From positions 1 to 64,000 of the forward strand of contig JHUT02000001.1 in the NCBI GenBank assembly GCA_000690595.2: DNA of 64,000 nucleotides, written 5' to 3'. Positions 7,138-27,511 of the stretch are shown in pieces. The position numbers were made by a program, and so were the translations under genes. Numbering within the stretch: the stretch's first letter is position 1; each line of letters begins with the position of its first letter. The notes under the pieces are model-generated. The model was not told the origin of the DNA, made no database searches, and was given only the letters and a program-made list of their open reading frames with translations. The DNA is from Natrinema mahii (GTDB taxonomy: Archaea; Halobacteriota; Halobacteria; Halobacteriales; Natrialbaceae).

Positions 7138-8069
7138 TGCAGGAACCAGCTACGTTTAAACGATTGCGAAACGCGGATGTTGCGGTCATGCACGATGACG
7201 TCGAGGAGACCTACTGGTGGCTCCTTCGATCGTTACCTGCAATTGACTATCTCGGCTTCTCAGCGTTCACCTATCCGACGTCATGGCGGACACTCAATAC
7301 TGGCGGACAATTTCAATCGTATACGCAGCAGTATGATTACCTAGACTATGAGTACAAAGTTCTGGGTCAGATCGAGGAAGAAACCTATGATAGCGATTTA
7401 GTGGTCATCACCAATGAGTACTACGAGTCTGAAACACAGTACTCAGTCGACCACCTCGTAAGTCGGTACTCTTCCCGTCCCGAAACACTTCTCGTCGTAA
7501 CCGACTCTCGGCGATTCACGCCACATGGGGGACAGCGTCCACTCTACCAGGAGCAATTCGTAGAGCGGATTGGACCATATCAACGGCTGTATGATGCATA
7601 CGAATCCGTGTATAAAGATGCTGGATGGGAGCTGTCGCTCATCGACACGAAGAATCTATTTCTTCACGACAACGCGAACCTCTACGAGATCGTGGACGGA
7701 GACTCGTTAGAAACGACTGAGGAGCTGTTTGCGGTACTCCCAGATTCCCCGTATCTCCCACTCTACCGTGTATTTGGTGAGATTTTCGGACGGGAAGATG
7801 AATATGGAACGGTTCCGTTAGACGAGGATGACGTCACTGGGCTCGAACGCTGGCTTCGACGTCGTATCGAGTGGGATCGTGGAACAGCTAAAGACGTGGC
7901 CCAAAAATTGAACAGAGCAGTAGGCGAAGAGGGGCGTACGTTCGATCCTTCGTATGCAGCACGGAGCCCGGAAGTCCGTGAAGCACACCAGACTTCGAAA
8001 CAAATCGATCCAAATGAATCGTCAATCCACAAACGCTATCACAATTGGTTACAGCAAGAGTTCCAATGA
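7137..8069 (+). CDS. Unrecognised 310-residue operon protein
   Basis: Starts at the ATG overlapping the TGA of the helicase (TGATG at 7135-7139) and ends overlapping the next ATG (8066), so it is tightly coupled to both neighbours. I do not recognise the family. The protein is rich in aromatic residues, with patterned stretches LLVVTDSRRFTPHGG (about residue 119) and WELSLIDTKNLFLHDNANL (about 163); the hydrophobic beta-strand followed by DSR could be part of an alpha/beta fold. There is no membrane segment, no cysteine cluster and no visible P-loop. It has no clear counterpart in the bacterial dpd order that I can name, so it may be a partner specific to the archaeal version or a diverged subunit of the helicase before it. 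Confidence 0.6.
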   Translation: MQEPATFKRLRNADVAVMHDDVEETYWWLLRSLPAIDYLGFSAFTYPTSWRTLNTGGQFQSYTQQYDYLDYEYKVLGQIEEETYDSDLVVITNEYYESETQYSVDHLVSRYSSRPETLLVVTDSRRFTPHGGQRPLYQEQFVERIGPYQRLYDAYESVYKDAGWELSLIDTKNLFLHDNANLYEIVDGDSLETTEELFAVLPDSPYLPLYRVFGEIFGREDEYGTVPLDEDDVTGLERWLRRRIEWDRGTAKDVAQKLNRAVGEEGRTFDPSYAARSPEVREAHQTSKQIDPNESSIHKRYHNWLQQEFQ

Positions 8070-8905
8070 GCAGTAGTGAGGGTTACATACTGAACGCGGT
8101 TCAGACACCGGGCCCACTCTTTCCGGTCTATCGCTCTGTCGAGGGGGGACACAGCACGAAAAGTGAGATACAAGCAGACACCGGTATCGATTCAGGCTTG
8201 GATGCCGCGATAGGAGGCTTACAGCTACTCCATCTCATAGGTAGAGAAGATGGCGAGTATTATACGAGCTCCTATCAGTGGAACGTAGACTCAGACGAAC
8301 TCGGATTCAAGTTGACTGCATTGCACAATCTCGCACAAGAGTGCGTATCCGGTGCTTGGGGAAAGCAAGCCGTCGTTCTTCTCAACTATAGCTACCTCTT
8401 GCGAAATGACATCCAATATTTCGAGAATAACGAGGAATCGGTCTATAACGGAATCGATGGTTGGTTCAAAGAAATAAACTACCAGCCACAATCACAACAG
8501 GGACTCATCACACATAACGATAATAAGTTCGCAAATTGGACACGACTCGTCCACTTCCTTGGTCTCGTCCACAAGGTCCGCGGGCGAGAACACACGGTCT
8601 ATCCAGACCCCGAGCTGATCCGAAAATCGCTTGAGTTCGCGACTGACGATACTGGTATCGACGTCGACGGAACACCAGGGATAGAGATGGAAGAGTATCT
8701 CCGATGGCTTCGGGAGAATCTCCTGTACGTCGAATCGACATCTGATGGAGATATCCCAGAAGGACTTTCCCGTGTACTCTTCGAACTCGTCCGAAATGAC
8801 GAGATACAGATCGTCGAGTACGGAGACGCCGGTACAGTGGGATTAGGTGGTATTCCTCCTTACGAAGGAATCGACAGCCAAGCGAATACAATTACCTTGA
8901 TCTAA
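8066..8905 (+). CDS. DpdG-like protein (by position)
   Basis: A 279-residue protein starting at an ATG that overlaps the preceding stop (ATGA). The N-terminal 70 residues look like a winged helix (GGHSTKSEIQADTGI then GLDAAIGGLQLLHLIGREDGEYY, with the strand pair ending in an aromatic wing). The rest is mostly helical, with a second helix-turn-helix-like part (FANWTRLVHFLGLVHK, about residue 155). It sits directly before the large P-loop ATPase, as DpdG sits before DpdH in bacterial dpd clusters. The name rests on position and size, not on a recognised motif. It probably forms an adapter or DNA-contact subunit of the restriction complex (inference). Confidence 0.5.
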   Translation: MSSSEGYILNAVQTPGPLFPVYRSVEGGHSTKSEIQADTGIDSGLDAAIGGLQLLHLIGREDGEYYTSSYQWNVDSDELGFKLTALHNLAQECVSGAWGKQAVVLLNYSYLLRNDIQYFENNEESVYNGIDGWFKEINYQPQSQQGLITHNDNKFANWTRLVHFLGLVHKVRGREHTVYPDPELIRKSLEFATDDTGIDVDGTPGIEMEEYLRWLRENLLYVESTSDGDIPEGLSRVLFELVRNDEIQIVEYGDAGTVGLGGIPPYEGIDSQANTITLI

Positions 8906-8906
8906 C

Positions 8907-11849
8907 ATGAGTACTGAACAAGATCTTCAAGCACAACGTTCGCATCTCTATTGCCCGCACTTCCAGAACGTCGACGAAAAGACGCTCCGTCAGCTGTTCT
9001 CGAAGGTGGCAGCGGTTCGATCAGATAACCGTGATCTCTTCGATTTTACTCATCGGCCAATCAAAGTATTCCGATCGCCACAAGGTACACAAGCGGAAGA
9101 AGAGATCGTTAGCGAAGAAGCAGTCTACCGTGAGTTTTCCGATGAACGGGTTGGAAACTTCACTGTCGTAATTGAAGGTGAGGTCGGAACTGGGAAGTCA
9201 GAGCTTTGTGCTTATCTGGCACATCGGTTAAGAGACAACGACAGACCGATCCTTCACGTCGATAAGGACGACGACTTGATGACGTTACTTTCGGAGCGAA
9301 TCCCCGAATTCTACGAAGAACAATTCGGTGAGGAGCTCCCCGGAGCGTCGAATTTCAAGCAACTAAAGGACGACCTCGAGCAGAATGGTCGAGTCGTCGC
9401 AAACAATGCGACGTCTGGGGCCATCCTAAATCTGAGTGCTCATGGATATAATGTCCATGTTCAGGACAAGGAAGACGACATTCGAGACTTCGTCCAGGAA
9501 CAACTCTCTTTACTCGTCGAGAAGGGGGAATACGCTAAGGAGATCAAATTCGTTACCGAGCAGGCGTATCGACGAAACGACTTCCTCCAGATTTTCGAGG
9601 ATGACGTCGATAAGAGCGATGCAGTAGATGCGTTCAACAAGGAACTCTGGCGGGAAATTCGTGATCGATATCAGACCGCCTCGCTTGACGATGTTTTGGA
9701 GCGAGTCGGGCAGAAGTTCACCGATACGCGTCCGGTCATAATCTTCGAGGACTTCGCGATCACAGCGATGGAGGGCCAGCAGCTCCGAAATTACATGGAG
9801 CGTGACAAGCCAAGCGATAACTGGGATTTCGTTGTCGCTGGTACGCGCGACTCCACTCAGGTCCTTCACACGCGGACTGCTGAAGATCGGTTCGAATTCT
9901 ATCGCACGAACAGACAGAATTCGAACCAAGTTCTCTTCTTGGATGAAGATTCAGCGGTCGACTTCATCCGCCCGTATCTTGGTTATTTCAAATCCTTCGA
10001 CAATAGCGTTACCTACGACCGGAGTGGAGAAGGACTCGAGATAGAATTAGAACCAGCCCCAACCGATTCAATTTGTGATAGGTGTGGATTCTGTGACGAA
10101 TCTTTCCGTGACCTCTTCCCCTTCAACGAGCCGTTCCTTCAGCGAATGTACGCCGGACTTCGCGAAGACGAACAGTCGCCTCGAGAGTACGTAATGGCCG
10201 TATTTGATGTCCTTCGGGATTACTACGAAGGCTACATCAATGTGCCATCCGATGCTGATCGTCTATCCACTCTCACTAATCCTGTTGATCCAGATACAGC
10301 GATTTACGAACGTGCTGAATCTTTCGCAAAACTCGGACGATGGTATGGCGTCCCGACAAAGAACGGAATAGAAGTCGATAGCCGTTTTGTCGAAGTGTTC
10401 GGCTTTTCCGAGATTGTCGATGAAATCAATGAAGTGGAAAGAAATAGAGATTCAGTACTGATTCCAACAGATATCGGCAACAGCGGAACCGGAATACGTA
10501 CCGGAAGAAGTGGTACCAGGACTGAAGGAGGTTCCGGGGCCGGAAGTGGAACCGAAGGAGGGACTGAAACCGGAACTAGTTCCGAACCACCGTCGCGGTC
10601 GAAAGCCGAACGACTGATCGACGAGCATCAACCGAACGTTCAACCGTGGCAGAAAAATCCGACTGATTTCCCAGAGATCAGTCGCTATCTCCGAGTCGGG
10701 CTTCGGGACGCGATGGAGCGCCTGACGAACGGATTTGAATTATTTGAGGGTATGTCACTCCGGTATAATCTGAGTAGTCAGAAAGACCCGTTCGTCTTCG
10801 AAACTCTGCAACGAGCACCCGATGACGACCAAATAGTGATCGATCCCCAAGAGTTCCGGCTCTCTGACCTCAAAAAACTCCTCGAGTTCGGAATCTACCG
10901 TCAAGAAGACAAAGCGAAGGCAGATTACGATGATTTGCTTCGGGAGCTCGGCACCCAACTAACTGGCTACGCAAGGATCTGGCAGCAGAAGGTTATAAAC
11001 AAGAATCTTCGATCGGACAGTCGTTTCTTCAAAAAATCGGTTAGATATGAATTCGAAGACTTCGTCTTGGCTGGCTATGCGAACGTGGTCATGCTCGACT
11101 CTCCGTTCAAAGAGATGAGTGCCAAAACACTAGGTGAGCGCTTCTCTGATGGAAATTCATACGGATTAGACCCGACGCTCAGATCGGAGTTGAAGTCGGA
11201 ACTGTCCAAGGACCAGTACGAGGCCATTACGAGATTCCTTGATTACGGCGAGTGGTTCGAAGAGATGATTAGCGCATTCTTCGGAGCTAATGCCAATACG
11301 CTTGATCTCTCGAAAATCCGAACCCATCTCGATAAAAATTCACCGTACGAAGTACTCGAGGGACTCGGGCGGCAGTATATTCAGGACATTTCACCTCGTG
11401 TTCGGTTTGACACCGATAACAAAATCCGGGATATCGCCAACCAGACGTATGATCTACAGAACGCGCTTGAAGAGGTGCGCGACGAGTACCGAACGACGGT
11501 GGTTGAGACGTTTACCCAAGAACTGTCTGATGTCTCTGTTTCGGAAATTGAGGCAGGCGTCAAGACCCTTCGTACCTACGATAGCGCCGATTCAGAAATG
11601 ATCGAGTCACTTAGCAAGTTTATCGAACTCGACCAATCGGAAATCAATGATGCGGTTTCTGCTGCTGAGAGGGCAACTGATCTGTCTGAAGGCGACCCTA
11701 GCGAAAAGTTACAGGGAACGCTCATCAGTATGAAACTCGCGTCCTCTAATATCTACGGTCGATACTCAGATGTTACGATCGTCGGAGGAGGATCGGCATC
11801 AGAATTTGCTGAACACTTCCAATCCGTTGGGGAGCATTATGTCAACTGA
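8907..11849 (+). CDS. Large P-loop ATPase, DpdH-like
   Basis: A 980-residue cytosolic ATPase. A leader with the pattern FTHRPIKVFRS (about residues 47-57) precedes Walker A GEVGTGKSE (91-99); Walker B is VIIFED (277-282) and a sensor-like stretch VAGTRDST follows near 313. The arrangement of a His-Pro-x-x-x-x-Arg-Ser element before the P-loop recalls bacterial DpdH as I remember it. A CDRCGFCDESF zinc-type pair is near residue 392. A Gly/Ser/Thr-rich low-complexity linker (about 520-566) separates the ATPase half from a helical C-terminal half. One base separates it from the preceding stop, and its end overlaps the next gene by 11 bases. By family analogy it powers the restriction arm of a Dpd system; BREX-type large ATPases (BrxC/PglY) are the closest alternative. 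Confidence 0.6.
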   Translation: MSTEQDLQAQRSHLYCPHFQNVDEKTLRQLFSKVAAVRSDNRDLFDFTHRPIKVFRSPQGTQAEEEIVSEEAVYREFSDERVGNFTVVIEGEVGTGKSELCAYLAHRLRDNDRPILHVDKDDDLMTLLSERIPEFYEEQFGEELPGASNFKQLKDDLEQNGRVVANNATSGAILNLSAHGYNVHVQDKEDDIRDFVQEQLSLLVEKGEYAKEIKFVTEQAYRRNDFLQIFEDDVDKSDAVDAFNKELWREIRDRYQTASLDDVLERVGQKFTDTRPVIIFEDFAITAMEGQQLRNYMERDKPSDNWDFVVAGTRDSTQVLHTRTAEDRFEFYRTNRQNSNQVLFLDEDSAVDFIRPYLGYFKSFDNSVTYDRSGEGLEIELEPAPTDSICDRCGFCDESFRDLFPFNEPFLQRMYAGLREDEQSPREYVMAVFDVLRDYYEGYINVPSDADRLSTLTNPVDPDTAIYERAESFAKLGRWYGVPTKNGIEVDSRFVEVFGFSEIVDEINEVERNRDSVLIPTDIGNSGTGIRTGRSGTRTEGGSGAGSGTEGGTETGTSSEPPSRSKAERLIDEHQPNVQPWQKNPTDFPEISRYLRVGLRDAMERLTNGFELFEGMSLRYNLSSQKDPFVFETLQRAPDDDQIVIDPQEFRLSDLKKLLEFGIYRQEDKAKADYDDLLRELGTQLTGYARIWQQKVINKNLRSDSRFFKKSVRYEFEDFVLAGYANVVMLDSPFKEMSAKTLGERFSDGNSYGLDPTLRSELKSELSKDQYEAITRFLDYGEWFEEMISAFFGANANTLDLSKIRTHLDKNSPYEVLEGLGRQYIQDISPRVRFDTDNKIRDIANQTYDLQNALEEVRDEYRTTVVETFTQELSDVSVSEIEAGVKTLRTYDSADSEMIESLSKFIELDQSEINDAVSAAERATDLSEGDPSEKLQGTLISMKLASSNIYGRYSDVTIVGGGSASEFAEHFQSVGEHYVN

Positions 11850-12519
11850 TACAAAGTCGCTCGAGGATCGATTGAATAGCGTTATTGAGGAACACCGCCG
11901 CCGCCATCTTTCCGATGAACTCGATGAGATTGCCGTGACGATGGAGGAGACTATTCTCCAACGGGTCCTCGCAAAAGCGTTCTTCGACGAGGACATCGAG
12001 TTCGAGTCGGAAACAAAGGAACAGGTGCAAGAAGTACTAACGCTACTCGAGCAGAACAGATACGAAGAAATTGAAGAACGGTTAGATGACCTTCGAAAAG
12101 ACGTCGAGACCGCAGAGACAACAGTAGAGAATCGCATTCAGGAACTTCGGCTTAAACATAACTCGACTGTTGCTGCCATGCGCCGTCTGAATAACCGAGT
12201 TGACCGAGTTAGCGGAATGCGACTTCAGGCTCTTGAAGGTCTTCTCGGGGACTGGCGCTGGAAGGAACACGTCTATCTCAACGATGATGCCGATCTTGAC
12301 GAGCTCAAAGAGAACGCCCGACAGTACGGAAATGAGATGCGAACGGCGTTCGATGAGCTCCAAGAAGAGATGTTCGGTGCTTACCCCGAAGAGATTAGGG
12401 ACCTTATTCATCGGATGATCGACGATGAACGATTATCTTACGACGATCTCACCGATAATCAACGAAAGCTCCTTGCAGAGTCAGATGTTGGTGAGTACAT
12501 CGAACTCACTTTATCCTAA
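11839..12519 (+). CDS. Coiled-coil protein, DpdI-like by position
   Basis: A 226-residue, strongly charged helical protein that starts (ATG 11839) inside the end of the ATPase gene. Residues about 40-120 have heptad-like Leu/Ile/Val spacing (FVxxEx, EEIEERLDDLRKDVETAE), a long coiled coil, and the tail has further amphipathic helices (IRDLIHRMIDDERLSYDDL). There are no catalytic or metal-binding motifs. It lies between the DpdH-like ATPase and the second giant helicase, where bacterial clusters carry dpdI. It could be a structural bridge between the ATPase and helicase (inference). The overlap implies coupled translation in a fixed ratio with the ATPase. Confidence 0.5.
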   Translation: MSTDTKSLEDRLNSVIEEHRRRHLSDELDEIAVTMEETILQRVLAKAFFDEDIEFESETKEQVQEVLTLLEQNRYEEIEERLDDLRKDVETAETTVENRIQELRLKHNSTVAAMRRLNNRVDRVSGMRLQALEGLLGDWRWKEHVYLNDDADLDELKENARQYGNEMRTAFDELQEEMFGAYPEEIRDLIHRMIDDERLSYDDLTDNQRKLLAESDVGEYIELTLS

Positions 12520-12604: not shown

Positions 12605-15600
12605 ATGCAATTCATAGATCGACACACCAATTCTTCGCGATTAGACGACGACATACGTCAACTCATCGAAGGAATCCTCTATAACCGCCGGATCTTCGAC
12701 GCTGAACAGGATGACCCCCCATTTGTCACAGAAGCAGTAAAGTATCGACGTGAACGTCAGGACCGCCGACAGACGAGTGAATATACCGGATCAGATCCAT
12801 TCGTAAATGATATCCTCAAGCTGTTTGACTTCGAAGAGCCATTGGATTTCCAAGTCGAGAGCTGGCAGACGGTAGACGAATTGGATCACGACCGTCTCAA
12901 GTCAAACGAGAGCAAAGCAGCCATCTTTTCCGCTCCGACCGGGTTTGGGAAGACAGAAGCATTTTTAGGACCTCTCTATCAACTTCTCCGAGAAGAGCGT
13001 CAAGAGTCGACAGCGATCGTCTATCCGAGCCGGGCTTTGCTTCAAGACCAATTAGGCCGTATCCTCAAACACATTCACGAAATCGAGTCTCAATTCAATG
13101 AACAGCTTTCTGTCGGGATATACGTCGGCGGAATGCCGTATGAGATAAGCGACGTCGAAACCGATACAACCTTCTTCGAAACGAAAGGTGGCCATCCCAG
13201 ATTCAAGCTCGCTAACTGCTGGTGTGGTGAAGAAGGCTCACCAAATGCATTCGAGTTTCACGGGTCGTCGAGGGGATATACGCTGAAGTGTGAGAACAAC
13301 GATAACCACTCCTTCACTGACCGCGATATTCTCCTTTCGCGCCAGGATATGGTGTTCAACAATCAGCCGGATATTCTCCTTACGACGCTCGAATCTCTCG
13401 AAGGGTTTGCGTTGAAGCCTCACTATCCCCTGATCGACAATATCGAGACGATTGTCCTGGATGAAGTTCATTTGAATACTCAGATGCGAGGAGCACATGC
13501 AGCCAACATCATTCGAAATATAAATGAAATAACTGATCACCCGATTCTGTGGCTCGGTTCCAGTGCTACGATCGATAGTGCCGAACAGTTCGGCAAGCAA
13601 CTCTTCGGAGTCTCGAGTAACAACATTCGAACAGTAGAACCAAGGGAATCGGATTTCGACGACGATCACGAGGATTACGAGCACTACTATTTCATGCTGG
13701 CGTCGGAAGACGGTCCGGGTGCTTCCTCGATGTCAATCCAGCAGCACCTACTCTTCGGACATAGCCTTCTCGAGCAGTCATCCGGCGAACGAGGGAAAAT
13801 GCTTGCATTCATCGACAGCATCTCCCAAGTGAATCAGAAATACACACAGCTCGTTGACGCCGATCACAATCGAGAACTGTGGCGATACCATCTCGGCTCC
13901 GACGATGTCGAAGACTGGACTCAGGTCGCACGAGAGATGGATCACAACTTCCTCGATGAGCATCTCGAGTTTATGCCGGTGTACTCCGACCGAGGATTTG
14001 ACTCAGCCGAAGTCGCTAATAGTGACGTGTTGCTTTCCACGTCATTTCTGGAGGTCGGCATCGACGTTGGGGAAATCAAGACGATTACTCAGTATCGAAC
14101 ACCATGGGATCTCTCCTCGTTCCAGCAGCGAGCAGGGCGCGCTGCCCGGAAAGAAGGGATGGATGCACACATCGCTGTCATGCTTTCTGGACTTACCAGC
14201 GATGCAAATATGTTCTATCGGGCGGATCGATTCCTGGATTCCGATATTCGCACCCCACTGAAAACCGACAACGAAGTCGTTGAGTGGATTCATAGTCGAT
14301 TTCGAGATTATTACGAGACTGCGAGTGACATCAGTAGCCGAAACCTCCGACTTCAGAACCCACACGAGCTCTTCCTGGAGGAGTATCTCGATAACCAGCT
14401 CGACTACACCAAGTACCGGCAGCTAATACTTTCACCAGATGACTTCTTCGATGAAGAGTTCGATATTAACGTATCACCTGAGGCCCTACTTTCTGAGGAG
14501 CTCGTAAACGAAACGAGAGAGAGTCTTGAGGAATACCACGCTAACTTGCAAGAAGAGTTCGACGAGATTGAGTCGTTCTTCGGTTTAGACGATGGCAATG
14601 TCGTACGTGGTGAAGACGCGGTTGACACCTACGTGCATAAGGTCCAAGAGCGAGTGCTAAAATTGATTAACGCTCTGTCCGGTCAGGTAGCGGGCTACAA
14701 GAACGAACTCGATTTGCTCGGCGAATCTACACAGACCACTGAAATCAAAGAACTGGAATCCGAACTAGAAACGCTTCGTGAGAGTGCATCTCGGATTCCG
14801 GATGGTAAAACGCAGACTAAGGTTCAACACTTCGAGACACTATTGGGAGATCTCTTCGGCCTGAGTGGTGATCTAATCAAGCTTCAGAGCAGAGTAAATC
14901 GAACGAGTGAAGAGCCGATACCACAGGTTCGAACTGATCGTCTTAATGAGGTACAGGAGGCAGTCACGCGACTCAATAATCTGAGTGATGACGATCGAAT
15001 CAAGGAGTACTACCGAACGCAGAAACGCATCTACTACCTCAAAGAGGCACTCGACGAACTTGAGCAGTACGTGGGTTTTAGAACGCCATACCTCAGTTTG
15101 TATGCGATCAAGAATCTTCTCCGCGGTGCATACTATCTGGATCGATGTCTCAGAACTGACGACCGAAATCTGGGTGAAATCTGGTACGTTCCACCCAATT
15201 ACTACGGTGACTCGGGACGATTCTTCCGCGTCTTAGACCCGGGGAGTCAAGGAGGATCTGATGAGTCGATAGACAAGCTCGTCAGTACATATACGCCGTA
15301 CCGCTCGGAATATCAGTCGGAAACGAACGAGATGCGGGCCTTCCTTCCGCATACACAAGTGACTGAGGACGGCGTGGAGTTTGATTTCTCAGAATACGTG
15401 AGTGGTGAAGTCCGTGATGGTGTCTTCGTACCAGATTCGATCGAACTGTCCTCTGTGACGGATCTCAGTGGAGATGCTGCACTCAACATCGTCCGATACT
15501 GTCCAGAGTGCTACCAGATAATCTCGGATCTAGACAACTGTCTTCGACACGGCAAGAGCGCATTAGGGAAAATTCACTCCGATCCCCAAGTGAGTACGCA

Positions 15601-16681
15601 AATCACCGACCGTGATGAGGTCGAAACGACAGGTACGATCTCATTAGCGGACGTCACCTCGGAAGTTACCCTCGAAGGCGTCACACTCGATATCCGACCG
15701 GCTAGCGACTGGGGCGGAGAGATAAACTTCGATGGCAGCGATCCGTTCGAAGTCGAGATTGAGAGCCCGGACGAGAAGCTTGGCTTCCAACTCGATACGC
15801 GTGGTCTCGTTTTCGATATGGATTCGTATCTCCAGAAGATCAAACAAGACGAAGTCCGTAAAGTTGCCGAGCAGTACACCGACTTCGATGACGCCGACTA
15901 CGAGTACGTCGCTTACCACACGGCTGCTCACTTCTTCCTTCAGCTTGTTTCAGACATCAGTGCCGTCAACACGACAATGTTGTTCTATGGATTCAATCCG
16001 GAGACAGGCGAGGTTTACGTTTTTGAGCGTACGGAAGGAGGTCAAGGAATCGTCGATTTGGTCTATAACGAACTCTCTAGAGATCCGGGGACCGCCCTCG
16101 AGGCGATCAATCGAATCGCGTACAATCCCCAGGTCATCAACGAGCGGCTTTGGGCTCAAGAAGACTTCATCGATCAGTTACCGACTGATCCGGAAGAAGA
16201 GGCTGCTATTGAGTCGGTCGTCGATAAATTCTTGGAAAACCCGTTCGATTCCGTTTTAGAGCGAGTCGTTCAGGAGGTACTCTCTAGCGTCGACAAAGCT
16301 ACCCAGTTCGCGAAAGACGAGAATCTCGATATCGGAGAGACATATCGGGTCAAACACGTAATCGCTCAGGAGCAGCTCGACGGAAATGATGAATTCCCAG
16401 AAGAGGCAGTCACAGCGTTAAATCTTGGCCTCTCCGAGATTGATCGAACCAAGACTGTGTTTTACTCACCTGATATCGACGGTTGTGTCGAGAATCTGCA
16501 TCTCAGCGAGTGTATCGCAGCGACTGACCAGAGTGATTCGCTAAGCTACATTCTTCTCGAAGAACTCCGAGACCATCTTATCCGTAGTGTCCCTACGAGC
16601 GAAACAAGCAAAGAGATGTTCAAACGTAACTCTCCCCCAGCAGGTGAATTCGATGGTACAAGCATATTCCTTGACTTCTGA
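12605..16681 (+). CDS. Giant SF2 helicase, DpdJ-like
   Basis: A 1358-residue helicase, close to the length of bacterial DpdJ. Walker A is SAPTGFGKTEAF (about residue 112), motif II is the variant DEVH in IVLDEVHLN (about 283), motif III is GSSATIDSA (about 319), motif V is TSFLEVGIDVG (about 478) and motif VI is FQQRAGRAARKEG (about 504). A long coiled coil covers about 640-760 and a CPECYQII cysteine pair lies near 965. The C-terminal part has AHFFLQL (about 1107) and ERTEGGQGIVDLVY (about 1142), the DUF1998-like signature with its Gly-rich turn, and ends with paired cysteines near 1294-1302. It is a DNA translocase or helicase of the restriction module. The 3' end overlaps the PLD gene by 29 bases. 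Confidence 0.72.
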   Translation: MQFIDRHTNSSRLDDDIRQLIEGILYNRRIFDAEQDDPPFVTEAVKYRRERQDRRQTSEYTGSDPFVNDILKLFDFEEPLDFQVESWQTVDELDHDRLKSNESKAAIFSAPTGFGKTEAFLGPLYQLLREERQESTAIVYPSRALLQDQLGRILKHIHEIESQFNEQLSVGIYVGGMPYEISDVETDTTFFETKGGHPRFKLANCWCGEEGSPNAFEFHGSSRGYTLKCENNDNHSFTDRDILLSRQDMVFNNQPDILLTTLESLEGFALKPHYPLIDNIETIVLDEVHLNTQMRGAHAANIIRNINEITDHPILWLGSSATIDSAEQFGKQLFGVSSNNIRTVEPRESDFDDDHEDYEHYYFMLASEDGPGASSMSIQQHLLFGHSLLEQSSGERGKMLAFIDSISQVNQKYTQLVDADHNRELWRYHLGSDDVEDWTQVAREMDHNFLDEHLEFMPVYSDRGFDSAEVANSDVLLSTSFLEVGIDVGEIKTITQYRTPWDLSSFQQRAGRAARKEGMDAHIAVMLSGLTSDANMFYRADRFLDSDIRTPLKTDNEVVEWIHSRFRDYYETASDISSRNLRLQNPHELFLEEYLDNQLDYTKYRQLILSPDDFFDEEFDINVSPEALLSEELVNETRESLEEYHANLQEEFDEIESFFGLDDGNVVRGEDAVDTYVHKVQERVLKLINALSGQVAGYKNELDLLGESTQTTEIKELESELETLRESASRIPDGKTQTKVQHFETLLGDLFGLSGDLIKLQSRVNRTSEEPIPQVRTDRLNEVQEAVTRLNNLSDDDRIKEYYRTQKRIYYLKEALDELEQYVGFRTPYLSLYAIKNLLRGAYYLDRCLRTDDRNLGEIWYVPPNYYGDSGRFFRVLDPGSQGGSDESIDKLVSTYTPYRSEYQSETNEMRAFLPHTQVTEDGVEFDFSEYVSGEVRDGVFVPDSIELSSVTDLSGDAALNIVRYCPECYQIISDLDNCLRHGKSALGKIHSDPQVSTQITDRDEVETTGTISLADVTSEVTLEGVTLDIRPASDWGGEINFDGSDPFEVEIESPDEKLGFQLDTRGLVFDMDSYLQKIKQDEVRKVAEQYTDFDDADYEYVAYHTAAHFFLQLVSDISAVNTTMLFYGFNPETGEVYVFERTEGGQGIVDLVYNELSRDPGTALEAINRIAYNPQVINERLWAQEDFIDQLPTDPEEEAAIESVVDKFLENPFDSVLERVVQEVLSSVDKATQFAKDENLDIGETYRVKHVIAQEQLDGNDEFPEEAVTALNLGLSEIDRTKTVFYSPDIDGCVENLHLSECIAATDQSDSLSYILLEELRDHLIRSVPTSETSKEMFKRNSPPAGEFDGTSIFLDF

Positions 16682-17102
16682 AAGCCTCTCGTACTTTATC
16701 GGGTTCTCGCTACTACACAGTGACCGTGTCGTCATTGTCTCGCCGTGGTTGAGCGACGTCACGCTCCGACTTCCGGTCAATGACCGTTTCGAAGGTCGCG
16801 AAGTTCGGCTTCTACAGGCACTGGAAGAATTTTCAGATAAAGAGATCCATATTCTCGTCTGTGAGGGTGAAAATCATAACGAGTATATCAAGAATCGGCT
16901 TCCAGACCACGTTCACCTACAGGAAATTGACGATCTTCACGCAAAGGCCGTTGTTTGTGATGAATTCGTCTACATGGGGTCAGCAAATATCACTCACGGC
17001 GGTTTGACTTTGAATCGTGAATTATGTGAGGTGCTCGAGAACGAATACAACTCCGCTGGAGAATACGTGCGAAGAAAGCTTGACTTGGAGGTCAATCTAT
17101 AA
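16653..17102 (+). CDS. Phospholipase D-like nuclease, DpdK-like
   Basis: A 149-residue protein with one HKD motif: HAKAVVCDEFVYMGSANITHG (H-x-K near residue 95, then the usual G-S-x-N). One HKD per chain means it should work as a dimer, like other small PLD nucleases. Upstream segments VVIVSPWLSDV and EIHILVC are the beta-strands normal for the fold. Small PLD proteins close both bacterial dpd operons (DpdK) and DISARM operons (DrmC). The start at 16653 (ATG) lies inside the helicase gene; longer frames from 16587 have no better signal. It is the last gene of the operon and probably the DNA-cleaving effector (inference). Confidence 0.75.
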   Translation: MVQAYSLTSESLSYFIGFSLLHSDRVVIVSPWLSDVTLRLPVNDRFEGREVRLLQALEEFSDKEIHILVCEGENHNEYIKNRLPDHVHLQEIDDLHAKAVVCDEFVYMGSANITHGGLTLNRELCEVLENEYNSAGEYVRRKLDLEVNL

Positions 17103-19421: not shown

Positions 19422-19883
19422 ATGTCGACGTTACTCGTTCAATCTTGTTCAAAGTCTAAAAATGAGGTAGATGAACCCGTCTCAGCGCTCGAATTGTACT
19501 CTGGCTACTTCTTCAAAATAATCAAGAAGTCGATACGAGAAGGCGCTGAAAATTCAGATATTGATATGTGTATTCTTTCGGCTAAACATGGAATAGTCAA
19601 CCCAAACGAACAGATTTCCCCATATGACCAGCGAATGGATGCCAAACGTGCGCAGGAAATTGGGCCAAAAGTAAGAAAACAACTTCGACGTCGGATCAGT
19701 GAGAATAGTTATAATAATATTGTTATAAATGCGGGAAAAGACTATCAACGGGCTCTCGAGGGCTTCGATGATGATTTGGACGTTACTACGTTTGTGATTC
19801 AGGGAGAGGGAATCGGGATGAAAGGACGTGCACTGAAACAGTTCCTCCGAGGCGATCGGTCAGGCGTTGCGAGGGTGCACTAA
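19422..19883 (+). CDS. DUF6884/YaaA-like Cys-Ser-motif protein
   Basis: A 153-residue protein. The opening LLVQSCSKSKNEV puts a Cys-Ser-x-x-Lys motif on the first loop, followed by LYSGYFF, ILSAKHGIVNPNEQISPYD and a C-terminal NAGKDYQRALEGF. This is the DUF6884/YaaA-like pattern found beside TGT paralogues in phages and dpd-type clusters. The same layout (LLFIPCSQKK, then GMYGPV, then SKTYRQVIENAF) occurs in the C-terminal ArcS-type domain of the TGT fusion at 23271, so the two are probably distant homologues. It may bind DNA or the modified base for the transglycosylase (inference). The stop overlaps the next ATG (TAATG), indicating coupling to the first TGT gene. Confidence 0.65.
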   Translation: MSTLLVQSCSKSKNEVDEPVSALELYSGYFFKIIKKSIREGAENSDIDMCILSAKHGIVNPNEQISPYDQRMDAKRAQEIGPKVRKQLRRRISENSYNNIVINAGKDYQRALEGFDDDLDVTTFVIQGEGIGMKGRALKQFLRGDRSGVARVH

Positions 19884-21133
19884 TGTCGCAGACTGACTCA
19901 CTCTCAGCTGTTGACTTTGAGGTCTCAGCGACGGCAGGAGACGCTCGTACTGGAACACTGTCTATCGGTGAAACTGAGATCCGAACACCAAATCTTTTCC
20001 CAGTACTGAATTTCTATGGAGGGGGTACAAAAAACAGTGTATACGGTGGAGGAATCCACCGGACGGTAAAGGAATTCATGATTAGCGCCGATCGAGTCGG
20101 TGCCGGTGATTATTCTGAGTTCTTCGATGGTGTTCTCACATCTGTTTCTTCCCTTACGGATTACAACGTGACTCGGGAACGCTATGAGGATTATATTGCA
20201 GCCCCGATCAAAGAACGAGACGTCTTCTCACCGTTCTCTGGTACATTGTTTATCGATTCTGGAGGGTTCAAATTCCTCAATAATGATGGAATCGATGGGA
20301 GCAATTTTCAGGTCAACATCGATCAGAAAACAGCATACGAAATTCAGCGGAGGATGGGTGCGGATATTATCGTTAATCTTGACCGGCCAATCGCACCAGA
20401 CGATAGCCATGAGCAACGAATAGAGAAAGCTCGAAAGACTGGCGAAAATATTGAGGAATTCCTCCGCCTGTCATCCGATTTCGATGGAGCTCGTTTCCTT
20501 ACGCTCCATGGATATAATTACTCCATGATGGATGCATTTCTCACAGAGATCACGAAGTATTGTAGCGCTGAAACACTTTGTTCGTCGTTCGACGGCATAG
20601 CATTGGGTAGCCTTGTTCCGAAGAAGGACGACAGAAGCGCGCTCATCGATGCGGTCATTGATTGTCGAAGGGTGCTTTCTGATTGGGGGTTCGACGATCT
20701 CCCCCTCCACGTTCTGGGAATCTCGAGTCGGGCAATCCCACTGCTTACTGCTCTTGGAGTCGACTCTTTCGATTCATCTACCTACCTCCAAACAGCGATA
20801 AACGGCGGGTATTTTGTATCCTTGATGGAGACTGTAAATGTGTCTGAGGCGGATTTCGAGCAATGTAACTGTCCCGTGTGTTCGTCGGATCTCTTGCGAG
20901 GATGGATGGAAGATAAAGAAAACGCACCGTATCAGAAAGACAGGCTAGGTGCCGTTGCGATGCATAATCTGATCGTTCAAAAACGAGAGATGGCTAAGAT
21001 TCGGGACTGCATCAGTCGTAGCGAAACAGAACCGCTGATTCAATATATCGAATCGACGGTCGCACAGGATAAACCGACTAGAGAGTTTGCACATCGAGTT
21101 GTCAACCATTCGCTTGGAGGGTATTCCTTATGA
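19883..21133 (+). CDS. TGT-like DNA transglycosylase 1 (DpdA-like)
   Basis: A 416-residue member of the tRNA-guanine transglycosylase superfamily. It keeps the substrate-pocket loop FIDSGGFKF (about residue 125), NLDRPIAP (about 164), GIALGSLVP (about 238) and the nucleophile segment GVDSFDSSTYLQTA (about 291). The TGT zinc site is present as CNCPVC (about 328-333) plus a His in AMHN (about 360). There is no PUA domain, so tRNA binding is unlikely; position beside dpd-like genes points to DNA as the substrate, with guanine exchanged for preQ0. It could be the catalytic or the partner half of a pair with the second TGT at 23271, as in eukaryotic QTRT1/QTRT2. Its end overlaps the GHKL gene (ATGA). 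Confidence 0.78.
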   Translation: MSQTDSLSAVDFEVSATAGDARTGTLSIGETEIRTPNLFPVLNFYGGGTKNSVYGGGIHRTVKEFMISADRVGAGDYSEFFDGVLTSVSSLTDYNVTRERYEDYIAAPIKERDVFSPFSGTLFIDSGGFKFLNNDGIDGSNFQVNIDQKTAYEIQRRMGADIIVNLDRPIAPDDSHEQRIEKARKTGENIEEFLRLSSDFDGARFLTLHGYNYSMMDAFLTEITKYCSAETLCSSFDGIALGSLVPKKDDRSALIDAVIDCRRVLSDWGFDDLPLHVLGISSRAIPLLTALGVDSFDSSTYLQTAINGGYFVSLMETVNVSEADFEQCNCPVCSSDLLRGWMEDKENAPYQKDRLGAVAMHNLIVQKREMAKIRDCISRSETEPLIQYIESTVAQDKPTREFAHRVVNHSLGGYSL

Positions 21134-22683
21134 AAAAACATCCAAAAGTTAACGAAGTTAACGAGTTCCTCGAAATTGCTAGCGACTTCGAAGACCCACT
21201 CGAGGTAATCCGCGAGTCGCTATCGAACGCCTACGATGCAAATGCATCGGACGTTGAAATCGAAATCAAAAGCCGTGAAATGGGATCTGATATCATCATC
21301 GATGACGATGGTGATGGAATGGACGAGCGCGATCTCGAATCGTTTTTCGACCTCGGGAATTCACGAAAAACAGATTCGATCGGATACAAAGGCCACGGCA
21401 CGAAAATATTCTACAAGAGTGATCGTATCGTCGTAAGTACGGCAACTGACGATACTCATCTTCGCGCAAAAATGGAACAGCCTTGGGAAAAGCTCAACCG
21501 ACGCGAACTTCCCGAATACGAGGTGTCGGAGAGACCAGATAGTAAAGACCACACTGGAACCAGAATTCGTATTCGCAACTTCCGGTCCGGTGAGGGGTTC
21601 GATCCCGAGAAACTCACTTACAATAAGATCGAACACTATTTGAAGTGGAAAACCATTGCAGGCTCGACAGCTTATATGTTCGACGAGGAAGACCGGGAGA
21701 TGGACATTACCGTCCGGTTGGGCGATGAAATTGATGACTCACAGCCCAAACTCGAAACCACAAATCGATTCGAGTTTCCCGATCCGCAGGAAAAACCTGA
21801 CGAAGAGTCAGAATTCCCGGCGGAACGTATGTGCAAGCACTACGATCCTACTGAGATTGAGATAGAACACGACGGAGGGACATCTACTCTACAAATCGTC
21901 GGTATGGTCGGTGGCAAAGCAGCCCGAAACGAACTTCCTACTTACGGAAAGCATTCTGCGCAATTCGGAGTTTGGCTTGCGAAAGACCATATCAAAGTTG
22001 AACGATTAAACGAGGCTATTTCACACGACAACGAGTTTCTCCACTTCTTTTTCATAGTTAATTGCCAGGATATCGAACTTTCCGCGAATCGTGAAACAAT
22101 CCGGAACAAATCAAGCTCGGTGTTTCAGAAGCTCAAGGAAGAGGTCGAATACCACATGTCGAAGGTTGCACAGGACCCTTGGTTCAAAAAGTATCTCGAG
22201 CTTCGACGAGAAGCCGAGATTAAACGGCGAGCGAGGAAGCGTCGGTCGTCCCTGAAACAACGAAGAGAACGAGTGGAGTCCGAGGAAAAGAGCGAGCCGA
22301 CGAATCGGACGGAGGTTTTGCTTGAACTCGAGCGCTCGAACGGAACGGCGACGATGACGGTCGAAGACTTCGAACCGGACGCCGACGTTCACGCAATTGT
22401 CAGACAGAGTGGGAAGCTTAGGAACGCCGCAGTTCACTATTCACTAACTGATCATTTCGAAAATGAATTGACGTTTGAGGAGGTTGACCTCGTGATCTGT
22501 TGGGAATACGGTGACCCGGTAAAACTACGGGAGTACGAACGAAAGGGCTACCTCGGCGAGACGGTCGAAGTCGACCTCGACGAGAACGGATTATACTACG
22601 GAGACGACAATTCATACGTTGAAATTTTACCATTGAGTGAACAAATCGAATCTACTACAAAACAGGCCGTAGCTGATGATTGA
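21130..22683 (+). CDS. GHKL (Hsp90/MORC-like) ATPase
   Basis: A 517-residue protein with a clear GHKL ATP-binding fold: motif N is EVIRESLSNAYDAN (Glu29, Asn33), the G1 box is DDDGDGMD (58-65), a lid segment follows (FFDLGNSRKT) and the G2 box is GYKGHGTK (85-92). A middle domain runs to about residue 350, and a basic stretch RRARKRRSSLKQRRERV (about 364-380) could bind nucleic acid. The C-terminal 120 residues form a beta-rich domain without catalytic motifs. Related proteins dimerise through ATP to clamp DNA or clients. It is translationally coupled to TGT 1 (ATGA overlap) and to the nuclease-like gene after it. It is not part of the bacterial dpd set I know. Confidence 0.75.
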   Translation: MKKHPKVNEVNEFLEIASDFEDPLEVIRESLSNAYDANASDVEIEIKSREMGSDIIIDDDGDGMDERDLESFFDLGNSRKTDSIGYKGHGTKIFYKSDRIVVSTATDDTHLRAKMEQPWEKLNRRELPEYEVSERPDSKDHTGTRIRIRNFRSGEGFDPEKLTYNKIEHYLKWKTIAGSTAYMFDEEDREMDITVRLGDEIDDSQPKLETTNRFEFPDPQEKPDEESEFPAERMCKHYDPTEIEIEHDGGTSTLQIVGMVGGKAARNELPTYGKHSAQFGVWLAKDHIKVERLNEAISHDNEFLHFFFIVNCQDIELSANRETIRNKSSSVFQKLKEEVEYHMSKVAQDPWFKKYLELRREAEIKRRARKRRSSLKQRRERVESEEKSEPTNRTEVLLELERSNGTATMTVEDFEPDADVHAIVRQSGKLRNAAVHYSLTDHFENELTFEEVDLVICWEYGDPVKLREYERKGYLGETVEVDLDENGLYYGDDNSYVEILPLSEQIESTTKQAVADD

Positions 22684-23153
22684 TCACGATGGGTGAATTC
22701 GCTTCTGAAGTTCAAGTCTATATTCGAGATCGGCTCAAAGAGTCTCGTCCCTCTCTTTCGTGGGAAACGGAATACGATCTCGCAGGGACTCCTATCGATA
22801 TTGTCGGTACAAACGGAGAGACGATGGTAGCACTTGAATTAGAGTGGCGACGGGCGGACCCTGCTGATAACTCTGCGAAAATCTTCCGCCACCTCTATAT
22901 GGAGCAGATAGATGCGGACGAGGTACTCATCGCACAAATCTTCACCGGATACTATGATTTGACGAGTGGAGGTATCTCATCGAAGCGGAAAAACGCTGAA
23001 TTTGTTGGTAAGGTCGCTGCCGACTCGATTGATCATCTTTCGTATTATCCGATTCATCTCCCGATAGAGCCACCCAAGCGGGGAGAAGAGTGGCCGGAGT
23101 CGTGGGCTGAGGCTGCCGACGATACTGTCGAACAAATCATCGGTTGTCTTTAA
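22680..23153 (+). CDS. PD-(D/E)XK-like protein
   Basis: A 157-residue protein (ATG 22680 overlapping TGA; ATG 22689 is an alternative start). The core GTPIDIVG then MVALELEWRR places Asp40, Glu53 and Glu55 as in the restriction-endonuclease fold, with ExE instead of the usual ExK, and helices DNSAKIFRHLYMEQID follow. It may be an active nuclease with an altered third residue or an inactive relative. It pairs with the GHKL ATPase by overlap, a combination reminiscent of ATPase-nuclease defence pairs. No zinc site or membrane segment is present. Confidence 0.55.
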   Translation: MITMGEFASEVQVYIRDRLKESRPSLSWETEYDLAGTPIDIVGTNGETMVALELEWRRADPADNSAKIFRHLYMEQIDADEVLIAQIFTGYYDLTSGGISSKRKNAEFVGKVAADSIDHLSYYPIHLPIEPPKRGEEWPESWAEAADDTVEQIIGCL

Positions 23154-23270
23154 TCAATTGGTGAGATAGACACAGTCCAAGACTATTCGATTCTAAACTC
23201 TTGACGTGAAATAAGAGGGGATGAGAACGAAGGGTCTATCAGGTGCGCTTCAGTATTCGGTACTGATTCG

Positions 23271-25301
23271 ATGGCGTCCTTCCGGGTAAAGACGGTCGGT
23301 GACGACGGATATGGGCGGATCGGTGAGTTGGACGTTACACACGGACCTATAGAGACGCCAGCGATGTTCCCTGTCGTCAACATGATTGGGGGAACGACTG
23401 TGGAGTCCGGTGGCGTCTGGAGTCGGATGCGGAACAAGCTCATCGACAAGGAGCACCTTCAGGGAATAATGTTCCAAGCGATGAGCTTTACTGATTATGG
23501 TGTATCTCCAGATAATTTGAACGATTTCTGGAGACAAAAGACGTTCCACGAGCGGTTCAACGAGCACGATGACCTCCCTAACCTCGATGCCCCGGTCTTT
23601 ATCGATTCGGGCGGGTTCAAGTTGATGAATTCCAATACATTTGGTGAGGCTCCAGAAAAAGGTGGTGTGCCGAATGAGTGGGGGCTTTACACAGATCCAA
23701 AAAGCATCCTCGGTCTACAGCTCGATTTCGGTGCCGATATCGTTGCAACCCTCGACTATCCAATTCCCCCGAATCTGAAAGAGGACGAGAAAACCGAGCG
23801 GATGAATCGGAGTATCGATAGTGCAGTCGAGTGTCTTCGTATCCTCGATGAACCAGCACTTCTCGAAGAAAGTTTCTCCATCAACAGTCGTGCGGCTGAT
23901 CGCCTTCGCGAGCGAAAGGCCGCCGGAGAAGAACCGAGCGTCTACATTGCACTCCATGGGCACGATTACGAGACGATCAACTGGTACGTAGGTAGTTTCC
24001 TCAACCGAATTTCCGAACACGATCTCGATAGCTCGTTTCAGGGATTTGCAGTGGGGTCGCTCGTTCCGCTCCGAGACAGTATGGATATTTTAGTCGATAT
24101 CGTCCAAGGCGCCAAAGACGCTATCCCTGAGGAGCGTTCGGACGAAATCGGCTTACACGTTTTCGGCGTAGGTGGGAAACAGGTCGGGTTGCTTTCTCTC
24201 CTCGGTGTGGATACGTTCGACTGTTCGACGCACATGCAGACTGCACGGTACAAGAAGTATCTTCACCCAGACACCTGGGCAAATCATGAACTGGACGAAT
24301 TAGAAGACCATCTCGAACCAGACGGCAGTTTCCCTTGCGACTTGCCCAACTGTCTTCTATGTGATGAGAACGAAGTTAGCTACGAAACGCTAATCGAAGA
24401 ACTCAACAGGGATTGGACGTACGAGGAACGAGAACGTGTGAAAGACAATGGTGGAAATATTAAAAGTGACTACTATGCTCTATTGGCGCGTCACAACTTC
24501 GAAGTCTACAATGAGGAGCTCAGACGAGTGCGAGAGGCGATTCGCGAAGGCCAACTTTTAGACTACGTTATCGGATTCGCGCGGAGTCACGACGATATTA
24601 AACGAGGGCTGAAAGAAGCGCAGATCAGGGACAAACGACTCAGAGCCGAACTCGAGTCTCGTGGCGCGTATGACCTGCTCCCCGGCTCTACACTGACGAG
24701 CGATCAGACGAAACTCTCGGAATGGGACGGTGGTGTCGATGAATCCGTCGACACCCAGCAAATCTCTCTGAAGCATAGTCCGAACGATTTCGATATTTTC
24801 ACGCGGTCCTACGAACCTCCATCGGCCAAAGAAATCCTCTTGTTTATTCCCTGTAGTCAAAAGAAGCCATATTCACAATCGCGAACCCATTCGATTCTTT
24901 TCGACAAACTCGGGCCCCGAGTCGACAACATCCACAAGGTGACCATCTCGGGTATGTACGGACCTGTGCCCGAATCTTTCGAACAAGAACAACCGGTTCT
25001 GGAGTACGATTACGTCCTTGCAAAGGAGGATATCGACCAAATTGAGTTAGTCACGAACCGCGTTCAACGATATCTCGTACAATACGGAGACCAGTTCGAC
25101 CACATCGTCGGGTACGTGACGAGTAAAACCTACCGTCAAGTCATCGAAAATGCGTTCGATGAGTTCGGACGCGGCAAGGTTTTTCCCCAAGAACCAAAAG
25201 CGTTACAGCTTACAGAGTTTTTCAGAAACGAAAATATCCAAGAGCTCCTTGACTATTTGGACCAGCATACAGCTGATGATCTGAGTGACCAACATTCGTA
25301 A
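23271..25301 (+). CDS. TGT-like DNA transglycosylase 2 fused to an ArcS-type domain
   Basis: A 676-residue fusion. Residues 1 to about 430 are a TGT fold with FIDSGGFKLM (about 112), TLDYPIPP (about 159), FAVGSLVP (about 259), the nucleophile segment GVDTFDCSTHMQTA (about 311) and a zinc site CDLPNCLLC (about 356-364) plus His near 406. Residues about 520-660 contain PCSQKKPYSQSRTH (about 527-540), which fits the PCSxxKPYxxSxSH signature of archaeosine synthase ArcS, followed by VTISGMYGPVP. ArcS modifies preQ0 in archaeal tRNA (lysine addition and then archaeosine with a radical SAM partner). No PUA domain is seen. Inference: the protein swaps guanine for preQ0 in DNA and converts it further. 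A 117-base gap separates it from the previous gene. Confidence 0.78.
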   Translation: MASFRVKTVGDDGYGRIGELDVTHGPIETPAMFPVVNMIGGTTVESGGVWSRMRNKLIDKEHLQGIMFQAMSFTDYGVSPDNLNDFWRQKTFHERFNEHDDLPNLDAPVFIDSGGFKLMNSNTFGEAPEKGGVPNEWGLYTDPKSILGLQLDFGADIVATLDYPIPPNLKEDEKTERMNRSIDSAVECLRILDEPALLEESFSINSRAADRLRERKAAGEEPSVYIALHGHDYETINWYVGSFLNRISEHDLDSSFQGFAVGSLVPLRDSMDILVDIVQGAKDAIPEERSDEIGLHVFGVGGKQVGLLSLLGVDTFDCSTHMQTARYKKYLHPDTWANHELDELEDHLEPDGSFPCDLPNCLLCDENEVSYETLIEELNRDWTYEERERVKDNGGNIKSDYYALLARHNFEVYNEELRRVREAIREGQLLDYVIGFARSHDDIKRGLKEAQIRDKRLRAELESRGAYDLLPGSTLTSDQTKLSEWDGGVDESVDTQQISLKHSPNDFDIFTRSYEPPSAKEILLFIPCSQKKPYSQSRTHSILFDKLGPRVDNIHKVTISGMYGPVPESFEQEQPVLEYDYVLAKEDIDQIELVTNRVQRYLVQYGDQFDHIVGYVTSKTYRQVIENAFDEFGRGKVFPQEPKALQLTEFFRNENIQELLDYLDQHTADDLSDQHS

Positions 25302-27389: not shown

Positions 27390-27511
27390 ACCGGCGGAAA
27401 CGCGCCGGCCATGGTGGGGGCGAGCGCGTGACCCGCCGAGATGAGCAGCTACGGTGCGCAGCAGCGCAGGGCGACGTCGAGTCCTCGACGGTCGCGCGCT
27501 CAGAGGACAAA

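What the first reader, a model, noticed from the sequence alone, without database searches (positions are those of the whole stretch)
19422..25301. Two related Cys-Ser-motif domains, one free and one fused, bracket the modification operon
The 153-residue protein (LLVQSCSKSK, SAKHGIV, NAGKDYQRAL) and the C-terminus of the TGT fusion (LLFIPCSQKK, GMYGPV, SKTYRQVI) share strand-motif order and spacing. They are probably distant homologues placed at either end of the operon. The small one may be a DNA-binding or specificity partner.
Basis: partly seen in the sequence, partly recalled or inferred. Interest (0 to 1): 0.7.

Follow-up and report, generated by a model that had tools for sequence, protein, structure and literature searches.

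The report
Paired guanine-swapping enzymes, shared helper fold
A salt-loving archaeon's predicted antiviral island encodes two base-swapping enzymes, each tied to its own copy of one ancient helper fold, suggesting that it finishes a modified guanine in DNA in two chemical ways.

Summary
The free 153-aa protein (DUF6884) and the C-terminus of the TGT fusion (DUF5591, the archaeosine-synthase core) are real distant homologues. Profile-profile score is 38.4 against a maximum of 22.9 in 200 column shuffles. Both high-confidence models have the same solved structure at or tied for the top (2q07: Z 10.8 and 15.3). "Bracketing the operon" is not conserved: that layout occurs in 8 of 25 loci. What is conserved is a contiguous DUF6884-TGT1-GHKL triad (30 of 30 triad genomes among 292 searched). 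The fusion TGT2 is present in 27 of those 30, on either strand.

The small protein is better read as a DpdC-like enzyme working with TGT1 than as a mere specificity partner. DUF6884 is fused to a bona fide DpdA in an operon with FolE, QueD, a QueE-like protein and QueC in one haloarchaeon, and sits beside DpdA in a viral contig. TGT2 keeps both TGT catalytic aspartates (28 of 28) and the ArcS signature (26 of 28), so it looks like an active base exchanger fused to an archaeosine-type finishing domain.

The island fits BRIGADE Type I, already described in a 2025 preprint whose held text does not mention these domains. No chemistry is tested here.

The parts
19422..19883 (+). Free DUF6884 (YaaA-fold) protein, 153 aa; putative DpdC-like partner of TGT1
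   Evidence: PF21818 4.5e-19; DpdC models 2.2e-05; model pLDDT 95 matches 5caj YaaA and 2q07, both Z 10.8; stop overlaps the TGT1 start
19883..21133 (+). TGT1, tRNA-guanine-transglycosylase-like base exchanger, 416 aa
   Evidence: PF01702 6.2e-26; catalytic-type Asp motifs DSGG and FDS and Cys ligands conserved in 28 of 28
21130..22683 (+). GHKL-type ATPase, third gene of the conserved triad
   Evidence: PF13589 6.4e-13; full length in the same 30 of 292 genomes as TGT1
22680..23153 (+). 157-aa protein, possible nuclease; found elsewhere in other loci, not part of the conserved triad
   Evidence: only NucS_C E 0.26; homologues at other positions in G137, G164, G054, G253
23271..25301 (+). TGT2: TGT domain fused to an ArcS-type core, 676 aa
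   Evidence: PF01702 1.9e-27 and PF17884 2.3e-19; 28 of 292 class genomes; catalytic Asp motifs 28 of 28
24801..25181 (+). DUF5591 (archaeosine-synthase core) domain of TGT2 with PCSQKKPYSQSRTH signature
   Evidence: signature in 26 of 28 relatives and 30 of 30 ArcS; 2q07 Z 15.3
12605..16681 (+). DpdJ-like (YprA family) helicase
   Evidence: NCBIfam DpdJ 4.7e-49 (167 bits, below its 800-bit cut-off); PADLOC DpdJ 1e-50
16587..17102 (+). DpdK-like phospholipase-D-type nuclease
   Evidence: NCBIfam DpdK 8.4e-14 (below cut-off); PLDc_2 8.2e-08
2404..7137 (+). Second YprA-family helicase (Druantia/ARMADA-like) with C-terminal MZB/DUF1998 zinc domain
   Evidence: DruE 4e-40; PF09369 7.1e-09
8907..11849 (+). 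DpdH-like AAA/STAND ATPase
   Evidence: PADLOC DpdH 7.6e-10; nSTAND3 1.2e-4, below cut-off
7044..8905 (+). Two small conserved genes of the helicase-ATPase block (341 and 286 aa)
   Evidence: no Pfam or PADLOC match; co-occur with the helicase and ATPase in relatives
11770..12519 (+). 249-aa conserved gene following the ATPase
   Evidence: co-occurs with the ATPase in relatives; only weak Pfam matches

Best explanation
The two domains are diverged copies of one fold (YaaA / DUF6884 / DpdC-like / ArcS-core) whose job, where known for DpdC and ArcS, is chemistry on the nitrile of 7-cyano-7-deazaguanine (preQ0) already placed in a nucleic acid. In this island each belongs to its own base-exchanging TGT. 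TGT1 puts preQ0 into DNA, and its translationally coupled partner DUF6884 converts that nitrile, most likely to the amide as DpdC does. TGT2 puts preQ0 in by itself, and its fused ArcS-type core adds lysine or otherwise makes an archaeosine-type base, possibly finished by the host's RaSEA. The marks would label self DNA for the helicase-nuclease block (two YprA helicases, DpdH-like ATPase, DpdK-like nuclease). Shown here: homology, shared fold, conserved residue set, conserved gene pairing, TGT catalytic motifs kept in both, DpdA-DUF6884 fusion with preQ0-synthesis genes in a relative. Inferred: that the substrate is DNA, that each domain is catalytic, and which product each makes.
For: Homology and fold. 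DUF6884-TGT1 same strand with ORF ends overlapping or up to 4 nt apart in 28 of 28 loci, and contiguous in the two further genomes: 30 of 30. In G130 DUF6884 (65.7 bits, cut-off 30) is fused to a DpdA that passes its equivalog cut-off (301.7 against 200), in a gene run with FolE, QueD, a QueE-like protein and QueC. A viral contig has DUF6884 15 nt before a DpdA (383 bits). 30 of 32 relatives match DpdC models. ArcS signature in TGT2 26 of 28, with TGT Asp motifs 28 of 28; genuine ArcS keeps the signature 30 of 30 and lacks DSGG 30 of 30. Host carries arcTGT, ArcS, RaSEA and QueC elsewhere, so precursor and RaSEA are available. DpdC hydrolyses dPreQ0 to dADG (PMC12839542, passages); ArcS adds lysine to preQ0 (PMC11298593, abstract in the listing and passages).
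Against: No chemistry is shown. The DpdC matches are weak and partial (window protein: residues 11-80 on positions 43-111 of a 319-position model, 2e-05), and there is no NCBIfam DpdC hit. Evolutionary distances do not single out TGT1 as the partner of DUF6884: rho 0.57 with TGT1, 0.58 with GHKL, 0.61 with TGT2. The two cyanobacterial TGT2-type fusions lie without DUF6884 nearby, and the Planktothrix genome has none. Three of 30 triads lack TGT2, and one TGT2 genome (G236) lacks the triad. Two TGT2 relatives lost the signature histidine.
Confidence: 0.5

Rival explanations
1. The free DUF6884 protein is not an enzyme but a DNA-binding or specificity subunit that delivers TGT1 to its sites.
For: Same fold as YaaA (5caj, Z 10.8); the Pfam paper describes YaaA as DNA-binding and DUF6884 as sharing its positively charged cleft (PMC11701544, passages); tight coupling to TGT1.
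Against: Putative active-site residues C9, K13, S53, G57, Y68, Y108 invariant in 32 of 32, including fused and generic relatives, more than a pure DNA binder would need; relation to DpdC models.
Confidence: 0.2
2. The DUF6884 protein recognises or removes bases (repair or base-excision restriction) instead of finishing the modification.
For: Pfam authors model the DUF6884 protein YfjM flipping a base and cite its binding to DNA lesions (PMC11701544, passages); weak structural hits to SMUG1 glycosylases (Z 5.8-6.4).
Against: SMUG1 hits are within background (Z under 8) while YaaA and 2q07 stand at 10.8; constant coupling to TGT1 and fusion to DpdA with preQ0 genes fit modification better.
Confidence: 0.12
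3. TGT1 and TGT2 act as a heterodimer in one pathway, so both helper domains serve two successive steps on one base.
For: Both TGTs co-occur in 27 of 30 triad genomes; [quoted passage not shown]
Against: TGT2 alone in cyanobacteria and in G236, TGT1 alone in three genomes; both keep catalytic residues.
Confidence: 0.13
4. The operon modifies tRNA, not DNA.
For: ArcS and TGT families act on tRNA (established knowledge).
Against: The host already has separate arcTGT, ArcS and RaSEA; only TGT and DUF5591 are found in TGT2; the genes sit with Dpd-like and YprA defence genes.
Confidence: 0.05

Closest known systems
BRIGADE Type I (Bell et al. 2025, PMC12458937; abstract, passages and figure legends read)
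   Same: Two YprA helicases of different branches, PLD nuclease, predicted 7-deazaguanine cluster, haloarchaeal host
   Different: The held text does not mention TGT, DUF6884, archaeosine or GHKL; the TGT-ArcS fusion and paired helper domains are not described there (supplementary figure and tables not seen)
Bacterial Dpd system (DpdA/DpdB/DpdC plus DpdD-K)
   Same: TGT-type base exchanger plus YaaA-related protein; DpdJ-, DpdK- and DpdH-like genes
   Different: TGT1, DpdJ-like and DpdK-like all fall below the NCBIfam equivalog cut-offs; a second TGT fused to an ArcS core; a GHKL ATPase in the triad; no DpdB match among the proteins scanned
Archaeosine synthase ArcS
   Same: DUF5591 core with PCx3KPYx2Sx2H signature next to a TGT-type domain
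   Different: TGT domain keeps catalytic Asp motifs (DSGG absent in 30 of 30 ArcS); scores 111.6 against a 440-bit cut-off; core lies on its own fully supported side of the tree with cyanobacterial fusions
DUF6884 / YfjM and YaaA (DUF328)
   Same: Fold, CxxxK and LSAxxG motifs
   Different: Here coupled to a TGT and shown related to the ArcS core
PADLOC candidate PDC-M57A
   Same: 32 of 32 relatives match the model
   Different: No other PDC-M57 component was matched by the proteins scanned

Membership tests
DUF6884 (PF21818) | Score above Pfam gathering cut-off | tested here: met
   69.4 bits against 30
DUF6884 (PF21818) | CxxxK and LSAxxG motifs | tested here: met
   C9, K13, S53, A54, G57 invariant in 32 of 32
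YaaA / DUF328 (PF03883) | Score above Pfam gathering cut-off | tested here: not met
   24.6 bits against 29.6
YaaA / DUF328 (PF03883) | YaaA fold | tested here: met
   5caj Z 10.8, 149 aligned, rmsd 3.5; next unrelated row Z 7.0
ArcS | DUF5591 core with PCx3KPYx2Sx2H signature | tested here: met
   70.2 bits against 26; window carries the signature
ArcS | Equivalog score (NF040592) | tested here: not met
   111.6 against 440 bits
ArcS | TGT domain degenerate (no DSGG) | tested here: not met
   DSGG present in 28 of 28 TGT2, absent in 30 of 30 ArcS
ArcS | Transfers lysine to preQ0 | not testable with these tools
   needs an assay
Dpd system | DpdA equivalog (NF041059) | tested here: not met
   TGT1 27.6 against 200 bits; TGT2 no hit
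Dpd system | DpdC | tested here: inconclusive
   PADLOC DpdC 2.2e-05, partial; no NCBIfam hit
Dpd system | DpdJ and DpdK equivalogs | tested here: not met
   167 against 800 and 51.5 against 100 bits
BRIGADE Type I | YprA helicase of the Dpd branch | tested here: met
   best named match DpdJ, 1e-50; no helicase tree built
BRIGADE Type I | ARMADA-like YprA helicase | tested here: inconclusive
   DruE 4e-40 and MZB zinc domain; no tree against ARMADA
BRIGADE Type I | PLD-type (or PD-(D/E)xK) nuclease | tested here: met
   PLDc_2 8.2e-08, 32.6 bits against 27
BRIGADE Type I | Predicted 7-deazaguanine gene cluster | tested here: met
   two TGTs, both above PF01702 cut-off
BRIGADE Type I | Halophilic archaeal host | tested here: met

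The most novel reading that the evidence does not exclude
The island writes two chemically different 7-deazaguanines into the cell's own DNA, an amide-type by TGT1 plus DUF6884 and an archaeosine-type by the TGT2-ArcS fusion, making this a cellular defence system that uses DNA archaeosine; and the whole YaaA / DUF6884 / DpdC / ArcS-core fold is a superfamily of preQ0-nitrile enzymes acting on nucleic acid.
Probability: 0.22. Interest if true: 0.82.

Novelty: new variant of a known kind. Interest (0 to 1): 0.52.

Why it matters
It gives a concrete, testable role to DUF6884, a family of unknown function above cut-off in 155 of 292 haloarchaeal genomes, links it to the archaeosine-synthase core, and predicts archaeosine-type bases in the DNA of a cellular organism instead of a virus. 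It also adds the chemistry half to BRIGADE, whose held description names a 7-deazaguanine cluster without resolving it.

Tried and rejected
Operon bracketing as a conserved design: rejected (8 of 25 loci; TGT2 same strand 15, opposite 10). Co-evolution as proof that DUF6884 partners TGT1 rather than TGT2: tested, does not discriminate. Direct sequence similarity of the two window proteins: none by BLASTP. TGT2 in viral contigs: 31 stretches matched a pattern, none confirmed. Solved relatives of the 153-aa protein by sequence: none at E up to 10. YaaA (5caj) does not appear among the 50 rows shown for the fusion domain; that is no evidence of a different fold. A 310-aa gene next to the second DUF6884 in G028/G142 was suspected to be another TGT: no Pfam or NCBIfam match. 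A first extraction of TGT2 relatives ignored strand and was discarded, redone. Literature: searches showed, in the listings and the passages I opened, no paper in the held library that describes the TGT-ArcS fusion or links DUF6884 to the ArcS core; DUF5591 is in no held paper. The primary Dpd and YaaA papers are not held, so this absence is weak; supplementary files could not be read.
Full report
The observation. The window holds a 153-aa protein at 19422-19883 and a 676-aa TGT fusion at 23271-25301, as stated. Pfam names the first DUF6884 (4.5e-19) and the C-terminus of the second DUF5591 (2.3e-19, aa 511-637), the archaeosine-synthase core. BLASTP of the two gives nothing, so I built family alignments: A1, 32 DUF6884 sequences (28 of the 30 triad genomes, three generic neighbours, one fusion domain), and A2, 28 TGT2 C-termini. 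hhalign gives 76% and 91% probability in the two directions. Over 200 column shuffles of A2 the highest score was 22.9 (mean 13.5) against 38.4 observed, and the reversed profile gave 0.5%. Against 30 ArcS cores it is 84-94%; against the ArcS, TGT2 and four further DUF5591 sequences merged, 94-95%; against TGT1, a negative control, 0.3%. Six of the eight invariant residues of A1 align with identical invariant residues of A2, read.

Fold. AlphaFold2 models have mean pLDDT 95.0 and 89.8. Foldseek puts 2q07 (AF0587) first for both and as the only match under E 0.001. VIA-align gives 2q07 Z 10.8 (121 aligned, rmsd 3.1) and YaaA 5caj Z 10.8 (149 aligned, rmsd 3.5) for the small protein, where the next row is 7.0; and 2q07 Z 15.3 (136 aligned, rmsd 2.7) for the fusion domain, where the next is 8.2.

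Gene order. A full-length TGT2 was found in 28 of 292 class genomes. TGT1 (E under 1e-100) and full-length GHKL occur in the same 30 of 292 (a 31st GHKL row, G039, is fragments). In the 28 loci read in detail DUF6884 and TGT1 are on one strand, with ORF ends overlapping or within 4 nt; the larger overlaps come from my longest-start choice. In G002 and G115 the three genes are contiguous by coordinates. So the triad is contiguous in 30 of 30. TGT2 accompanies it in 27 of 30. Of the 25 loci with all genes inside the stretch read, TGT2 is on the same strand in 15 (downstream of GHKL in 8, upstream of DUF6884 in 7) and opposite in 10. The three triads without TGT2 (G028, G142, G290, all of the window's genus, so perhaps one event) carry a second, generic DUF6884 directly upstream. 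Every triad examined thus has two proteins of this fold nearby or in the genome, but generic DUF6884 genes are common in the class (155 of 292 above cut-off), so I treat this as suggestive only. G236 has TGT2 without the triad; next to it lies a PF23859 DpdA-family gene.

What the partners do. In G130 one 563-aa protein is a DpdA (301.7 bits, cut-off 200) fused to DUF6884 (65.7, cut-off 30), in a gene run with FolE, QueD, a QueE-like protein (only a sub-cut-off 4Fe-4S match plus my reading of the sequence) and QueC. In Halobacterium bonnevillei DpdA (277.9 bits), DUF6884 (27.7 bits, just below cut-off), a TGT and a GHKL ATPase are neighbours. In one viral contig of 80 fetched, DUF6884 precedes DpdA (383 bits) by 15 nt; a second, L236, has a weak TGT match overlapping DUF6884. 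Thirty of 32 A1 members match PADLOC DpdC models at up to 0.1 and 12 of 32 match DUF5591 at up to 1, best 1.1e-05. DpdC is stated to be DUF328 and to hydrolyse dPreQ0 to dADG (PMC12839542, passages), and one preprint lists DUF6884 as the Pfam domain of DpdC (PMC11888242, passages). That is the basis for reading the small protein as DpdC-like. Pfam had already related DUF6884 to YaaA (PMC11701544, passages); the link to the ArcS core is what this work adds.

TGT2. It keeps DSGG and the FD(C/S) motif in 28 of 28 and the ArcS signature PCx3KPYx2Sx2H in 26 of 28; 30 of 30 ArcS proteins keep the signature and 30 of 30 lack DSGG. The ArcS rows were picked by a PCx3KPY pattern, so only the rest of the signature is an independent count there. 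The naming of the two aspartates as catalytic, and of the signature as ArcS-specific, is recalled from the TGT and ArcS literature. On a tree of 62 DUF5591 domains ArcS lies on one side of a fully supported branch, with TGT2 and two cyanobacterial fusions on the other; the position of two Firmicutes sequences may be a long-branch effect, and the root is unknown. The core was therefore not taken recently from a haloarchaeal ArcS. The host has its own arcTGT, ArcS and RaSEA on one contig, and QueC.

System. The surroundings (two YprA helicases, DpdH-like ATPase, DpdK-like nuclease) match BRIGADE Type I of Bell et al. (PMC12458937; abstract, passages and figure legends read), reported only from halophilic archaea. 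Its held text has no hit for TGT, archaeosine, GHKL, MORC, queuine or DUF6884; its supplementary figure was not seen. Equivalog cut-offs for Dpd proteins are not met, so this is Dpd-like, not Dpd.

Mechanism and doubt. I favour two TGT-plus-helper pairs making two finished forms of DNA preQ0. Against it: no chemistry, weak and partial DpdC matches, distances that do not single out TGT1 as partner, and TGT2-type fusions living without DUF6884 in Planktothrix. Hutinet et al. already suggested that phage ArcS might also hydrolyse as DpdC does and reported dG+ in a phage with ArcS (PMC6884629, passages), so DNA archaeosine in viruses is known; in a cellular defence island I found no report in the held library.

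Noticed in passing
L154:9977-13635 and L155:9977-13644: Cyanobacterial (Planktothrix, Oscillatoriales) TGT-DUF5591 fusion, about 36% identical to TGT2, with signature and TGT motifs intact; in L154 next to a GmrSD-type nuclease and a HEPN protein, with similar-looking genes in L155. No DUF6884 in the Planktothrix genome.
   Followed up: partly
L157:890-2780 and L159:8562-10453: In two Firmicutes MAGs a free DUF5591-like protein lies beside and divergent from a separate TGT-like gene: an unfused counterpart of TGT2.
   Followed up: partly
L091:9219-17964: Haloarchaeal island with TGT, DpdA-DUF6884 fusion, FolE, QueD, QueE-like, QueC and a NucS-like gene.
   Followed up: partly
L156:3970-11916: Halobacterium bonnevillei run GHKL ATPase, DpdA, DUF6884, TGT, 300-aa protein: another arrangement of the same parts.
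   Followed up: partly
L160:2641-4517: Environmental viral contig with DUF6884 directly before DpdA.
   Followed up: partly
L088:7390-8322: 310-aa gene without any Pfam or NCBIfam match, conserved next to the second DUF6884 in G142 and G028; a GmrSD-type nuclease follows the triad.
   Followed up: no
window:17149-19186: Nmad3 (nucleotide modification associated) and NucS-like genes on the minus strand between the DpdK-like gene and the triad.
   Followed up: no
window:741-2339: 532-aa protein with homing-endonuclease-associated repeats (PF18780, 4.9e-34) and a helix-hairpin-helix end, upstream of the first helicase.
   Followed up: no
window:25375-27294: 639-aa protein after TGT2 ending in a winged-helix region (sub-cut-off HTH matches).
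   Followed up: no
window:27428-36843: GC content rises from about 0.50 to 0.69 beyond 36 kb, with a tRNA-Glu at 36768-36843 and a gene at 27428-28705 that looks by eye like a tyrosine recombinase: possibly an integrated element.
   Followed up: no
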